The notes beneath the pieces were generated by a model. The model had not been told where the DNA came from, did no database searches, and worked only from the letters and a program-made list of their open reading frames with translations. Position numbers and translations under genes: made by a program. A DNA stretch of 43,575 bases from Wenzhouxiangella sp. XN79A (lineage in GTDB: Bacteria > Pseudomonadota > Gammaproteobacteria > Xanthomonadales > Wenzhouxiangellaceae). Numbering within the stretch: the first letter of the stretch is position 1; every line of letters starts with the position of its first letter. Shown piece by piece: positions 1 through 3,496 of the stretch. Where the stretch lies: positions 1-43,575 of the forward strand of contig NZ_JAAWWS010000129.1 in assembly GCF_012272825.1 (NCBI RefSeq). The letters run 5' to 3'.

Positions 1-25
1 GGCTATATCCGGATCTCGCAAAGCT
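1..25. repeat. Left terminal inverted repeat of the ISL3 element
   Basis: Matches the reverse complement of 1402-1426 at 19 of the first 23 positions. It lies 69 bp beyond the transposase stop codon. It defines the left boundary of the element, which is also the window edge. Confidence 0.8.
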
Positions 26-69
26 CTGATCGCCCGCAGCGCCTGATCTGACTGTCTTTGCCGGCGTTT

Positions 70-1311
70 TCATAGTGTGCGGAACCGCACTGGAATTTGC
101 CCAGGCAGATCGAGGTCTCCAACGGTCAGGTAGATCATGTCGGAGAACGCATCGAGATGGCGGAAGCCACTGGCGCGATTCTTGACGATCTTGACGATGC
201 GATTGAGTCCTTCAGCAATAGCGTTGGTCACGCGGGTGCCGATGAAGGCCAGCACGGCATCCTGGTGGCGTCGGAGGGTATGGACGAACTTTCGCAGCGG
301 CTCCAGGCGGCTGAGCAATGCACTTTTGGTCCACTGCTTCAGGAACCGCTCTGCCGCCCAGGGTGCCTGGTAGGTCCAGAAGTGCTCGAACTCTTCTTTC
401 AGGCGCCAGGCGCGATAGATTCGCCGGTTGTGTTTGTCGAGCGCATTGAGGTTTTGGGTATCGCGCCGGCTTCGGGTCGACGAATGGCGTGAGAGCAGCC
501 AGCGCAGCCCTTTGAGCGCCTTGCGTTCATCCCGGGTAGCCTCCCGCCACTGCTCTTTGCGAACCTCGTCGACGGCCTCGTTGAGCGCCTTAACGATGTG
601 GAAGCGGTCCAGCACCAGGGTGGCGTTCGGGCAGTGTGTCTGGATGGCCCCGATGTAGGCCTGGCTCATGTCGCAGCAGGCGGTCTGGATCCTGGCCTTC
701 TGGTAGTCGCTGAGCGCTTCGTTGAAGAACCGGTCGATCGCCGCTCGGGCCTTGCCCTGGCCGATCCAGACCACGCAGGAGCGCTCCAGGTCATAGACCA
801 GCGTGGCGTACTTGTGACCCTTGTGATAGGAGATTTCGTCAACGCCGATGGTCTTGAGGCCTCGGATGCGATGGCCCTCGCGCAACCGGCCAATGGTGCG
901 ATGGAGCAGATCCGAAAGGGTCGAGGCGGGCAACCGCAGCAGCTGGGCGGCGGCCTTTTGCGGCATGATCTGGCAGTAGCGCAGCATCAGGTATTCAAAG
1001 CGGTGACTCACCCGGCTGCCCGCCTCAGACCAAGGTAGCTGCTCGGTCACCCGGCCGTGGGTGTCACAACAGATCTCACGCGGCCAGTACATCAGCCAGA
1101 TCGACCAGGGTCCGACCGGAATATCACGCCAGTAGCGCACCTCGGAGCGCTGGCGAACGATACGTCCCCGCCGGCCGCACTCCGGACAGCGGCAGCCGTT
1201 CTTGTAGGGCTTGACCAATACCTCGAGCCGGTTGCCGCGCCGAAAGGCCAGTCCATTGCACCGGAAATCCTTGAACTTGAGCAGCTTTGCGATAAGCTTG
1301 TAGACGGTCAT
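70..1311 (-). CDS. ISL3-family transposase
   Basis: A 413-aa transposase that would cut and paste the surrounding element. The N-terminus carries a cysteine zinc-finger (CRCPECGRRG, about residues 40-48), as in ISL3 transposases. This is followed by a DDE-type catalytic region: Asp in GVDEISYHKGHKY, Asp in CCDMSQAY, and the late Glu in NAIAEGLNRIVK. LDRFHIVKALNEAVDEVR is also characteristic of the family. The start is the ATG at 1311, because AAAGGAAC lies just upstream of it; an in-frame extension to 1368 has no such site and begins within the element's leader. No frameshift or stop interrupts the frame, so it may be active. Confidence 0.9.
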   Translation of the reverse strand: MTVYKLIAKLLKFKDFRCNGLAFRRGNRLEVLVKPYKNGCRCPECGRRGRIVRQRSEVRYWRDIPVGPWSIWLMYWPREICCDTHGRVTEQLPWSEAGSRVSHRFEYLMLRYCQIMPQKAAAQLLRLPASTLSDLLHRTIGRLREGHRIRGLKTIGVDEISYHKGHKYATLVYDLERSCVVWIGQGKARAAIDRFFNEALSDYQKARIQTACCDMSQAYIGAIQTHCPNATLVLDRFHIVKALNEAVDEVRKEQWREATRDERKALKGLRWLLSRHSSTRSRRDTQNLNALDKHNRRIYRAWRLKEEFEHFWTYQAPWAAERFLKQWTKSALLSRLEPLRKFVHTLRRHQDAVLAFIGTRVTNAIAEGLNRIVKIVKNRASGFRHLDAFSDMIYLTVGDLDLPGQIPVRFRTL

Positions 1312-1401
1312 GGGGGTTCCTTTCTGTACTGTTTGTTCTGGAAAACAAAACTTTACAGGAGGCCCCATGACCTCTCAAATCAGACCGGATCAAGTCTGAA
1401 A

Positions 1402-1426
1402 TCCGTTGCGAGATTCGGATAGACCC
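1402..1426. repeat. Right terminal inverted repeat of the ISL3 element
   Basis: The reverse complement begins GGGTCTATCCGAATCTCGCA and pairs with bases 1-25. It lies 90 bp upstream of the transposase start, so the transposase promoter probably lies between this repeat and 1311. The A-rich tract just outside it (1425-1433) may be the target site. Confidence 0.8.
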
Positions 1427-1542
1427 AAAAAAATACAGAATCAGGCCTATCTCTCGAAAGCAGTAGTGTAGAAACTGGAAGCAAGCAATGAGCTGTGACT
1501 TTTTCGATATTTGAATCTGGCAGAAGCCGGCAGAGAACAGGG

Positions 1543-2610
1543 TCAAGAATTCGGCAGCAAAAGAACCAGGACCGAGAAGGCAAAAAGATTCTGCACCAGG
1601 TGCAGAACCATGACTAGTGAAATCGAGTTTTTCTTCTCTCGAATAAAATAGAACAGCATCCCAAAACAAAGAACGGTGGCCAAATAGGCCACCCAGGAAA
1701 AAAACAGCGAAATGTTGAAGCGCGCCCCATCTGTAGCAATCAAAAGGCTCCAAAGATAAGGTATGGAGTGAGCACCTGCAAAAAACCAACCGTTTATTCC
1801 CGCCCGGACGATGAGCCGAAGCCCCTTCGCCCTTCGTTCATAAAGCCAGCCTCTGAAGACAGCCTCCTCCCAGATCGGCGCAAGAACAATCGCGCTTAAA
1901 AAGAAAAACAACAGCAACTGCGGCTGATTAGTTTCAGCTTCTGATGCGACAAAATCCTGCCGAAGGACAACTTGCTCGCCATCGACGACCGGGCCGAAAG
2001 AGAAAACGAGCAAAGCATAAATAAGGCTTGAAACCAGCACCCCGAAAACTACCGGCACCAAGAGCCACCACGGCCGAACAATGATTTCGTTCGCTGCACG
2101 AAGAATATCGTCACGCATTGAAACCTTTCGCAACGCGAACCATACGACCGGAAAATGAATGAGGATGTAAACAAGCAATAGCCAAGGTGGGAATGACAGC
2201 TCCGTAGAATCTTCGAAACTTATATTTGAGACAGAAAATCCTGATTCATCCAGGAATTCAGCTAATGAAACGAACTGGTCATATGCTTTGTCAAGGCTGG
2301 TTTCCGAAAATCGGCAGAATGTGAATCGCGCACCCTGACCGGTCGATACCCCTTTGCCACATCTCCCTCCAAAACGCGCCGCCAAAGACCCTATGGACTC
2401 TCTGACTTTCTCGAGTTCAGCGCCATTCAGACTTGAATCAGAATCAAGAATCAAGAATTCGACATCGACATTAGCTGGCGAAATGTACGAACCAGCTACA
2501 AAAACAAGCGCACTGGCGAGCAAACCGAAAAAAACACAAAACCCGGCGGCTTTCGCGTGCAGGAGAATTTGCTCAACTAAAAGCCCGATCTTCTTACGCA
2601 TTACTTTCAT
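1543..2610 (-). CDS. CPBP-family intramembrane metalloprotease
   Basis: A 355-aa multispanning membrane protein of the CPBP (Abi/CAAX prenyl protease-like) family. All three signature motifs are visible: EEAVFR at residues 248-253 (EExxxR), the FxxxH motif ending at His281, and HLVQN at 337-341 (HxxxN). Together these form the metal-binding active site within the membrane. Hydrophobic spans occur at about 22-42, 142-160, 182-205, 232-247, 300-325 and 330-352. A soluble, probably periplasmic, domain occupies about 48-140, longer than usual before the catalytic core. The start could also be the second Met (residue 4); neither has a strong ribosome site. The gene is clearly less GC-rich than its chromosomal neighbours and sits between an IS and a secreted-protein gene on the same strand, which suggests acquired DNA. 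Bacterial CPBP members act in peptide processing or self-immunity, but the substrate here is unknown. Confidence 0.85.
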   Translation of the reverse strand: MKVMRKKIGLLVEQILLHAKAAGFCVFFGLLASALVFVAGSYISPANVDVEFLILDSDSSLNGAELEKVRESIGSLAARFGGRCGKGVSTGQGARFTFCRFSETSLDKAYDQFVSLAEFLDESGFSVSNISFEDSTELSFPPWLLLVYILIHFPVVWFALRKVSMRDDILRAANEIIVRPWWLLVPVVFGVLVSSLIYALLVFSFGPVVDGEQVVLRQDFVASEAETNQPQLLLFFFLSAIVLAPIWEEAVFRGWLYERRAKGLRLIVRAGINGWFFAGAHSIPYLWSLLIATDGARFNISLFFSWVAYLATVLCFGMLFYFIREKKNSISLVMVLHLVQNLFAFSVLVLLLPNS

Positions 2611-2674
2611 GCACAGTTATCGGCGCGGCAGTTGCCGCGCCTGCTCATCAATCGAAAGTCTTCTTGTGAGAAAA

Positions 2675-3250
2675 TCAACGCACCACAACGAAGTCCCTGC
2701 ATGAATGGCTTGCGCCAACTCCGCAGGCTCCCGCCTCGAAGGAATCGATGCCGCCGAAATTGGAACACGACCGGATTGCCCGTCTGTGAGCATTCTGATC
2801 TCGCATCTCACATAACGTAGAGCTGATCACCAGCCCAACGGCACAAAACCCAAAACTGAGCGGGTTGGAAACACATGGAATCCAGATTCCTTCGGTCGCA
2901 CTCGGCGGCAGCACTCCCCCAGAGGAAGTTCCGTCAGCACTGATTGCGCTCCAAGTCCCAGATTCGAAGTTCATCTGATAACTCGTCAATTCACCTTGAA
3001 TAGGCTTTGCAATATCGAACCGGAGAATGGATCTGGCAACGTCAACATCCAAGCTACCAGCGTCAAGGAAATCTTCTGCATTGATTTCGACATACTGACT
3101 CGCGATGCCAGGTACAGAAAAGAGCACTAATGACAAGACCCCTGCTGCTGCGAAAAAAGAAGCAGTGCAGGATTTCTTCTCCTCATGAACTCTTCGTTCA
3201 TTGCCGGATTCATTCCTCCTGAAAACACGAAGTGACGTATAGTTCTTCAT
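2675..3250 (-). CDS. Secreted cysteine-containing protein, function unknown
   Basis: A 191-aa protein I do not recognise. It has a long charged N-region (residues 1-30), a hydrophobic stretch (31-48) and an AS-Q type cleavage site near residue 51, so it is probably exported. The mature part has six cysteines (126, 136, 147, 162, 176, 184), five of them in the last 60 residues, preceded by a Ser/Gly-rich linker (about 104-115). A short hydrophobic segment at 129-145 could insert in a membrane. The start is firmly placed by GAGGAG eight bases upstream of the ATG. The stop lies 64 bp before the CPBP protease gene on the same strand, so the two are probably co-transcribed. Base composition is AT-richer than the chromosome around it. 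Confidence 0.65.
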   Translation of the reverse strand: MKNYTSLRVFRRNESGNERRVHEEKKSCTASFFAAAGVLSLVLFSVPGIASQYVEINAEDFLDAGSLDVDVARSILRFDIAKPIQGELTSYQMNFESGTWSAISADGTSSGGVLPPSATEGIWIPCVSNPLSFGFCAVGLVISSTLCEMRDQNAHRRAIRSCSNFGGIDSFEAGACGVGASHSCRDFVVVR

Positions 3251-3262
3251 AAGACAAGCTCC

Positions 3263-3460
3263 TCAGATTGGCCATGAATAGTGAAATCCGGCCGCTTCAG
3301 CCTGCAAAATAATCGAACAACCGTAGGCTGTTTCAACCAGATGGAAGCGTGTAGTTGGAACGACCTTTCCCCAGCAACAACGCTCGCTCATAGCCTGCAA
3401 GAGCTTCCTGAACTCGTGAATCGGCAAATTTCTGTAAATTCCGTAGGAAATCGACGCCAC
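3263..3460 (-). CDS. Possible small protein upstream of the secreted protein
   Basis: A 65-codon frame starting with GTG and sharing the low-GC character of the islet. Its TGA stop overlaps the ribosome site (GAGGAG) of the 191-aa secreted-protein gene and lies 12 bp before that gene's ATG, an arrangement typical of translational coupling. The product is not recognised and has no signal peptide or transmembrane helix. The GTG has only a poor ribosome site, so this may instead be leader sequence. The fused E1 gene ends 36 bp away on the same strand. Confidence 0.3.
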   Translation of the reverse strand: MASISYGIYRNLPIHEFRKLLQAMSERCCWGKVVPTTRFHLVETAYGCSIILQAEAAGFHYSWPI

Positions 3461-3496
3461 CTCACGTGGTACGAATTCCTACATCGATCAGTAGAT

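What the first reader, a model, noticed from the sequence alone, without database searches (positions are those of the whole stretch)
1427..3490. Low-GC islet: secreted Cys-rich protein with a CPBP membrane protease beside an IS
Two or three same-strand genes with AT-richer composition lie between an ISL3 element and housekeeping genes. An exported protein with six cysteines paired with a CPBP protease resembles arrangements in which such proteases process or give immunity to secreted peptides. The link is inference from context.
Basis: partly seen in the sequence, partly recalled or inferred. Interest (0 to 1): 0.5.

Follow-up and report, generated by a model that had tools for sequence, protein, structure and literature searches.

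The report
Exported cysteine-rich protein–membrane protease pair
A small, apparently horizontally acquired two-gene cassette pairs an exported cysteine-rich protein with its own membrane-embedded protease; the pair was found in eight places in six bacterial genomes and looks like an undescribed secreted-peptide system, possibly an antimicrobial one.

Summary
Window 1543-3250 (-) carries two co-directional low-GC genes (0.49 against 0.70) between an ISL3 element, whose repeat ends at 1426, and a dehydrogenase gene: a 191-aa exported protein with six C-terminal cysteines and a 355-aa CPBP protease with intact catalytic residues. The possible third gene is unsupported. A diverged copy (27% identity in both genes) lies elsewhere in the same genome; in all, eight pairs in six genomes and three families of one order, in the same order and strand. 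Every relative of the exported protein that I accepted has the protease; the protease also occurs alone. Additions: the CPBP has an extra, probably periplasmic domain; seven of eight gaps hold a hairpin; in three relatives the exported-protein gene starts with a heptanucleotide repeat with differing frames, suggesting phase variation; in four relatives the cysteine spacing resembles defensins (CSαβ), and the window protein lacks the two cysteines that would form one bond of it. Best reading: a dedicated precursor–protease pair, most likely a secreted antimicrobial-type peptide that its CPBP processes or neutralises. The main rival is a MrtJ/JDVT-like sorting pair. No function is shown.

The parts
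1..1426 (-). ISL3-type insertion sequence (transposase 70-1368), flanking; it starts at the contig edge, so the DNA to its left is unknown
   Evidence: PF01610 7e-69 and PF13542; inverted repeats 1-21/1406-1426, 18 of 21
1543..2610 (-). CPBP intramembrane protease gene (355 aa)
   Evidence: PF02517 4e-11, 43.5 bits; EE-x3-R, F-x3-H, H-x3-N invariant in the 11 sequences aligned
1582..1920 (-). CPBP catalytic core (residues 231-343)
   Evidence: Pfam match
2209..2469 (-). extra domain between TM1 and TM2 (about residues 48-134), presumably periplasmic; cysteine C84 conserved in six of the eight paired proteins; beta-alpha-beta-beta-alpha-beta order in the model
   Evidence: Hydropathy; alignment; AlphaFold model, mean pLDDT 47.0, block means 39-64 here; Foldseek list mostly ferredoxin-like folds by my reading of the names, none significant
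2622..2641 (-). 8-bp perfect hairpin between the two genes
   Evidence: RNA fold; a clear hairpin in the same gap in 7 of 8 pairs
2675..3250 (-). exported cysteine-rich protein gene (191 aa)
   Evidence: ORF; no Pfam, NCBIfam, PHROGs or PADLOC family; homologues
2678..2887 (-). C-terminal Cys-rich domain (about residues 122-191) with six cysteines; hydrophobic stretch, polar helix, two strands in a low-confidence model
   Evidence: Alignments; model mean pLDDT 40.7, block means 58-72 over residues 151-190
3098..3250 (-). long n-region plus signal-peptide-like segment (cleavage site guessed after residue 51)
   Evidence: Hydropathy, KD 2.16 at residues 30-46; cleavage site by eye
3259..3264 (-). 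GAGGAG, likely ribosome-binding site 8 nt before the ATG
   Evidence: Read by eye in the sequence

Best explanation
The islet is a mobile two-gene cassette coding for a dedicated precursor-protease pair. The first gene makes a precursor with a Sec-type signal peptide, a variable middle domain and a C-terminal hydrophobic, disulfide-type cysteine-rich domain. The second makes a CPBP intramembrane protease whose added exported domain probably recognises that precursor. I commit to an antimicrobial-type peptide (bacteriocin-like, with a defensin-like cysteine framework in some relatives), which the CPBP matures and/or neutralises so that the producer survives. Shown: both genes and their conserved adjacency, order and strand; intact catalytic motifs; cysteine conservation; low GC and absence from the close relatives searched. 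Inferred: export, disulfides, cleavage, antimicrobial action, immunity, and a hairpin that sets precursor above protease.
For: Pair at 8 loci in 6 genomes and 3 families, exported gene first, same strand, gaps of 53-197 nt with the start codons I chose. Five of five further loci found from the exported protein have the CPBP next to it. Second copy in the same genome, both genes only 27% identical, all six C-terminal cysteines kept. A profile of the six CPBPs then known separates a full-length subfamily (7 hits, E 4e-144 to 7e-74) from core-only CPBPs (next 4.8e-27) in 398 genomes; six of the seven are the profile's own sequences, so this shows a distinct subfamily, not a pairing rate. Catalytic residues kept in 11 of 11 aligned. 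Pair GC below its surroundings in 8 of 8: by 0.17-0.22 in the window's genome, by only 0.02-0.06 elsewhere. No match in the other 42 genomes of the family, and no BLASTN match to the islets beside the flanking genes in genus relatives. Hairpin in 7 of 8 gaps. Heptanucleotide repeat at the start of the precursor gene in three relatives. CPBP genes without a visible partner, as expected of immunity genes. CPBP proteins are reported in bacteriocin production or immunity (PMC9298176 abstract).
Against: No match to a known antimicrobial family in NCBIfam or Pfam. Within four relatives the middle domain is as conserved as the cysteine domain, which would suit a functional protein with a sorting tail as well as a propeptide. 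C-domain net charge runs from -4 to +3, not strongly cationic. I saw no exporter or regulator shared by the neighbourhoods I read (not tested systematically); an ABC/HlyD pair follows L097 only among those read. The two f9 members have a different cysteine spacing. The one full-length CPBP hit that was not in the profile (L093) has no partner.
Confidence: 0.5

Rival explanations
1. A dedicated C-terminal sorting pair like MrtJ/JDVT-CTERM or myxosortase/MYXO-CTERM: the Cys motif plus hydrophobic segment plus basic residues is a tag that the CPBP cuts, so that the N-terminal domain is placed at the cell surface.
For: [quoted passage not shown] The window CPBP hits MrtJ NF033192 at 20.8 bits and relatives at up to 40.9 bits. 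A C or CxxC before a hydrophobic stretch, then R residues in most members, is present.
Against: MrtJ scores are below the curated cut-off of 75. No CTERM family matches the 8 targets (window protein at E<=1; the others at E<=10). A MYXO-CTERM tail ends in a short Arg-rich segment; here 41-85 residues with 3-7 further cysteines follow the hydrophobic stretch (positions).
Confidence: 0.3
2. A membrane-active toxin with a pure degradation-type immunity CPBP (Abi/CaaX immunity), the precursor being matured by signal peptidase and other proteases.
For: CPBP genes without a visible partner, including a full-length one; mobile, multi-copy, low-GC context; recalled: Abi proteins protect producers of some class II bacteriocins. 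After my check the pairing rate of the CPBP can no longer be held against this rival (the earlier figure was circular), so I raised it from 0.12 to 0.14.
Against: The added exported domain suggests substrate binding rather than general clearance (inference); nothing else separates it from the best explanation.
Confidence: 0.14
3. The two genes are unrelated neighbours carried by the same mobile DNA.
For: Low-GC mobile context next to an IS.
Against: Eight loci in three families with the same order and strand.
Confidence: 0.03

Closest known systems
MrtJ + JDVT-CTERM two-gene systems (and myxosortase MrtX/MYXO-CTERM)
   Same: CPBP protease beside a single exported target that has cysteine and a hydrophobic segment near its C-terminus; sporadic in gammaproteobacteria (PMC11980579 passages)
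   Different: Scores below the MrtJ cut-off; target matches no CTERM model; a long cysteine-patterned tail follows the hydrophobic stretch; the protease has an added exported domain
Bacterial cis-defensins (CSαβ), classes I-V, and actifensins
   Same: L036 fits the published spacing CX(2,18)CX(3)CX(2,12)CX(4,17)CXC and three more f8 members miss it by one residue in one loop (spacings, pattern); GxC present; helix then two strands in the low-confidence window model
   Different: Window protein lacks two of the six cysteines; precursor is 191 aa (the survey kept 30-130 aa); no profile match; 'CAAX' and 'CPBP' occur 0 times in the two papers searched
CAAX/CPBP proteins of bacteriocin loci (e.g. 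SilX of Streptococcus anginosus)
   Same: CPBP protease encoded beside a secreted peptide system (PMC9298176 abstract)
   Different: Here a Sec-type precursor with a large middle domain, in gammaproteobacteria, and an extra exported domain in the CPBP
Halocin C8 and SdpC-type toxins (recalled)
   Same: Long exported precursor with a hydrophobic cysteine-containing toxin at or near its C-terminus (recalled)
   Different: No such NCBIfam match; no call compared the sequences directly

Membership tests
CPBP / Rce1-like glutamic intramembrane proteases | Pfam PF02517 above gathering score | tested here: met
   43.5 bits against 22.4; nine relatives also above it
CPBP / Rce1-like glutamic intramembrane proteases | EE-x3-R, F-x3-H and H-x3-N motifs | tested here: met
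   Invariant in 11 of 11 aligned sequences
MrtJ/JDVT-CTERM | CPBP reaches NF033192 cut-off (75 bits) | tested here: not met
   20.8 bits for the window protein; 25.1-40.9 for the 7 other paired CPBPs
MrtJ/JDVT-CTERM | Target carries a CTERM sorting signal known to NCBIfam | tested here: not met
   No such match for 8 of 8 targets
MrtJ/JDVT-CTERM | Two-gene neighbourhood of protease and one target | tested here: met
   8 loci
Bacterial cis-defensin (CSαβ) | Spacing CX(2,18)CX(3)CX(2,12)CX(4,17)CXC | tested here: not met
   Window protein: no. Of 8 family members 1 (L036) meets it; 3 have 13 instead of at most 12 residues in one loop; 4 do not (judged from the spacings; the regexes run there were slightly different; pattern)
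Bacterial cis-defensin (CSαβ) | Helix plus beta-hairpin fold held by C1-C4, C2-C5, C3-C6 | tested here: inconclusive
   Low-confidence model has helix 141-161, strands 167-172 and 181-185. The only PDB sequence matched by the f8 profile at E<=10 is the scorpion toxin kurtoxin (E 2.5, cysteines in register); the six-row profile and a single f8 sequence matched no defensin. Pairing order recalled
Bacteriocin with Abi/CaaX immunity | Antimicrobial activity and CPBP-dependent self-protection | not testable with these tools
   Needs experiment
Anti-phage defence | PADLOC model match | tested here: not met
   0 of 6 proteins at E<=0.1

The most novel reading that the evidence does not exclude
A phase-variable bacterial system in which a long Sec-exported precursor carries a defensin-like (CSαβ-framework) cysteine peptide that is released or neutralised by a dedicated intramembrane protease with its own exported substrate-binding domain; related cassettes in other families carry other cysteine frameworks on the same chassis.
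Probability: 0.25. Interest if true: 0.8.

Novelty: new variant of a known kind. Interest (0 to 1): 0.58.

Why it matters
Natural substrates of bacterial CPBP proteases remain largely unexplored (so the PMC11980579 abstract). Here protease and presumed substrate come as a minimal two-gene cassette with eight diverged natural versions, which makes the substrate question directly testable by co-expression and mass spectrometry. If the peptide is antimicrobial, it would add a Gram-negative precursor type with a dedicated protease; if it is a sorting pair, it would be a further kind beside MrtJ/JDVT. The heptanucleotide repeats in three relatives suggest that expression of the exported protein, not of the protease, is switched, which hints at conflict or exposure at the cell surface.

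Tried and rejected
Class-wide search with the C-terminal domain profile (369 genomes): 24 genomes besides the window's own gave weak matches at E<=0.05. None of those loci held a full CPBP partner by profile (only a 51-aa stretch in L009 at E 0.053), several matches contained stops, one (L007) I judged by eye to lie against a regulator gene; I treat them as chance and left all out of the counts. Plasmids and viral contigs: no relatives. The genome-contig scan returned four loci that are copies of four already known. A full-length CPBP profile at class level (369 genomes, E<=1e-20) found only the window genome's two as full-length.

Precursor searches are insensitive: the two-row profile missed G142 and G170, which a three-row profile found, and the seven-row profile found only its own member L076 in family f9 and missed L097. 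Counts of pairs are lower bounds, and absence elsewhere is weak evidence.

Of the 213 genomes with CPBP matches, neighbours were screened for 26 loci (L067-L092) by a crude cysteine filter only; the rest were not looked at. Eight regions beyond L093 were read individually (L068, L076, L092, L096-L100): 2 of 8 held a pair (L076, L097), 6 did not. With L093 that is 2 of 9. Absence of a partner was judged on the few kilobases held.

Structure predictions were poor (mean pLDDT 40.7 and 47.0). Foldseek gave nothing at E<=0.001. PHROGs gave one weak hit for the C50 CPBP (3.5e-4, unknown function) and PADLOC none. Promoter and terminator scans of the islet were near chance (2 against 1.5, and 5 against 3.9). 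L076's precursor has a sub-threshold NCBIfam match to GLPGLI (E 0.017, 14.9 bits against 50), not pursued. Halocin C8 and SdpC were considered from memory only.

Notebook entry 3 called the L035 gene simply in frame; one search shows that its ribosome-site-proximal ATG is out of frame and a second ATG 7 nt downstream is in frame.

Full report
What is there. The segment between an ISL3 element and a fused E1 dehydrogenase gene holds two genes on the minus strand: a 191-aa protein (2675-3250) and a 355-aa CPBP protease (1543-2610), 64 nt apart. GC is 0.489 in the pair and 0.705 in window 3500-43575. The 191-aa protein has a signal-peptide-like segment and six cysteines in its last third. No family in Pfam, NCBIfam, PHROGs or PADLOC matches it. 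The possible third gene (3263-3460) has no support.

Does the pair recur? The window genome has a second copy on contig C50 beside pgk, with the same gene order and strand; both proteins are 27% identical to those of the window and all six C-terminal cysteines are kept. A two-row profile of the exported protein searched in 398 genomes of the order found one more locus, L003, in another family. A three-row profile in the 39 genomes of that family added L034, L035 and L036. So five of five further loci found from the exported protein have a CPBP directly downstream; weak class-wide hits are excluded as chance. In the reverse direction, a profile of the six known CPBPs searched in the same 398 genomes gave seven full-length hits (E 4e-144 to 7e-74) and then a gap to 4.8e-27, where the listed matches cover mainly the catalytic core. 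Six of the seven are the profile's own rows; the seventh, L093, lies between yaaA and an adenosine deaminase gene without a partner. Reading eight more CPBP regions gave two further pairs, L076 and L097, in a third family; six had none. Total: eight pairs, six genomes, three families, one order. The exported protein is thus always seen with the protease, but the protease often without it. Two genomes carry two copies each (G000, G142).

Distribution. No match to the 191-aa protein was found in the other 42 genomes of the family, by a search that is insensitive to distant members. The dehydrogenase gene was found in 4 of 5 genus relatives and pgk in 4 of 5; BLASTN of their roughly 1.4-1.5-kb downstream flanks shows no match to the islets. 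In G003 the DNA beyond the dehydrogenase gene is 0.66-0.73 GC. The left flank of the window islet is the contig edge, so a clean empty site cannot be shown. In all eight loci the pair is lower in GC than its surroundings: by 0.17-0.22 in the window's genome but only by 0.02-0.06 in the six others, so horizontal arrival is best supported for the window's genome. Beside the C50 pair, a diverged copy (107 of 132 identical) of part of the 3' end of pgk lies 3.7 kb downstream, as after recombination with foreign DNA. Plasmids and viral contigs gave nothing, nor did a sample of 369 genomes of the class.

The protease. Catalytic motifs are invariant in 11 of 11 aligned sequences. An extra domain lies between TM1 and TM2; the basic N-terminus suggests that it faces the periplasm (inference). 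Its cysteine C84 is invariant in the six proteins of the first alignment; by eye the two f9 proteins have none there. The model is weak (mean pLDDT 47.0, block means 39-64 over this domain) but gives beta-alpha-beta-beta-alpha-beta, and the Foldseek list is, by my reading, dominated by ferredoxin-like folds without significance. The only solved structure matched by sequence at E<=0.01 is Rce1 4cad (7.2e-5, core only).

The exported protein. Layout: signal peptide, middle domain (about 69-128 aa), then C or CxxC, a hydrophobic stretch and a cysteine-patterned tail (boundaries partly by eye). In four f8 members the tail reads C-x10-C-x3-C-x11 or 13-C-x5 or 6-C-x-C, with G two residues before the fourth cysteine (alignment). 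The published pattern for bacterial defensins is CX(2,18)CX(3)CX(2,12)CX(4,17)CXC (PMC11561630, methods section 13 read): L036 fits, the other three exceed one loop by one residue. Shuffles of the same segments meet a similar pattern that also admits the longer loop and asks for one of a set of residues two before the fourth cysteine in 41-72 of 20,000; the four sequences are related, so this is one observation, and it was made after the fact. The window and C50 proteins lack the second and fifth of these cysteines, which pair with each other in defensins (recalled), and keep two further cysteines upstream (C126, C136 in the window). The low-confidence window model has helix 141-161 and strands 167-172 and 181-185. 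The f8 profile has a single PDB match at E<=10, the scorpion toxin kurtoxin, with cysteines in register but E 2.5; the six-row profile hit the peptide AG41 at E 0.33 and two antibody chains, a single f8 sequence hit an antibody domain at E 1.1, and Pfam has no defensin match. The two f9 members have other spacings. I therefore call this a defensin-like framework in part of the family, not membership.

Operon anatomy and switching. Seven of eight intergenic gaps contain a clear hairpin, several followed by U-rich sequence. Against mononucleotide shuffles the whole gaps score z from -0.9 to -6.1; L003, L035 and L036 are not unusual overall, and L003 has no strong hairpin. Such hairpins could lower protease relative to precursor expression or simply separate two transcripts. 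In L034, L035 and L036 the precursor gene begins with a heptanucleotide array (GCAACAC)n of 23, 65 and 22 nt (Tandem Repeats Finder gives 10.3 copies in L035). The two-unit word occurs only at these loci in the two genomes concerned and not at all in four others searched. The ATG nearest the ribosome-binding site is in frame in L036 and out of frame in L034 and L035; L035 has a second ATG 7 nt downstream that is in frame. Seven is not a multiple of three, so copy-number change shifts the frame: this is the layout of a phase-variable gene. The window gene and C50 have no such repeat. These are assemblies from metagenomes, so the repeat count could be misassembled, least likely in the two short arrays.

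How it works. The best-supported core statement is that the two proteins act together (my estimate about 0.95). Which way is open. For an antimicrobial-type peptide: the cysteine-patterned hydrophobic C-terminus, mobile multi-copy cassettes, partnerless CPBP copies, frame-switching repeats on the precursor only, and reported CPBP roles with bacteriocins; SilX of S. anginosus is needed for bacteriocin activity, apparently through processing of a signal peptide, and not for immunity (PMC9298176 abstract). For a sorting pair: MrtJ with a single JDVT-CTERM target is a known two-gene arrangement (PMC11980579 passages), the CPBPs score towards MrtJ (20.8-40.9 bits against a cut-off of 75), and within f8 the middle domain is as conserved as the tail (37-52% against 33-47%), whereas the tail is the better conserved part between the two f1 proteins (26% against 20%) and the two f9 proteins (46% against 26%). 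Against sorting: the tail after the hydrophobic segment is long and patterned, and no CTERM model matches.

Literature. The listings of searches in the held open-access library showed no description of this pair; subscription papers are not covered. In PMC11561630 and PMC6989792 'CAAX' and 'CPBP' occur 0 times. Of PMC11561630 I saw the outline, passages, the first part of the results and section 13; of PMC5234102 the abstract; of PMC6989792, PMC9200625 and PMC11980579 passages; of PMC9298176 the abstract.

Noticed in passing
L035 1256-1327 (+), L034 2161-2183 (-), L036 2169-2190 (-): Heptanucleotide (GCAACAC)n arrays directly behind the start codon of the exported-protein gene, found only at these loci in their genomes, with different frame states: likely phase variation.
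   Followed up: partly
L051 15241-15372 (G000 contig C50); L049 4058-4155 (G001): A diverged (107 of 132 identical) fragment of the 3' part of pgk lies 3.7 kb downstream of the native pgk, with the second cassette and an acyltransferase gene between. In the genus relative G001 a second pgk-like stretch also lies about 1.4 kb beyond pgk. Possible insertion hotspot at pgk.
   Followed up: partly
L093 6099-7034 (-): Full-length relative of the CPBP without a precursor gene, between yaaA and an adenosine deaminase gene; the search reported one TAA inside the match.
   Followed up: partly
L096 5037-6044 (-): In a genus relative (G003) a related CPBP with the extra domain sits without a visible partner upstream of rsmG and a parA-like gene.
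   Followed up: partly
L097 3606-5230 (+): ABC-transporter ATPase and HlyD-like genes directly downstream of one pair; could be an exporter for the peptide or chance.
   Followed up: no
L052 (G142 contig C123) and L053 (G142 contig C125): Two diverged cassettes in one metagenome-assembled genome (precursors 46% identical), as in the window's genome.
   Followed up: no
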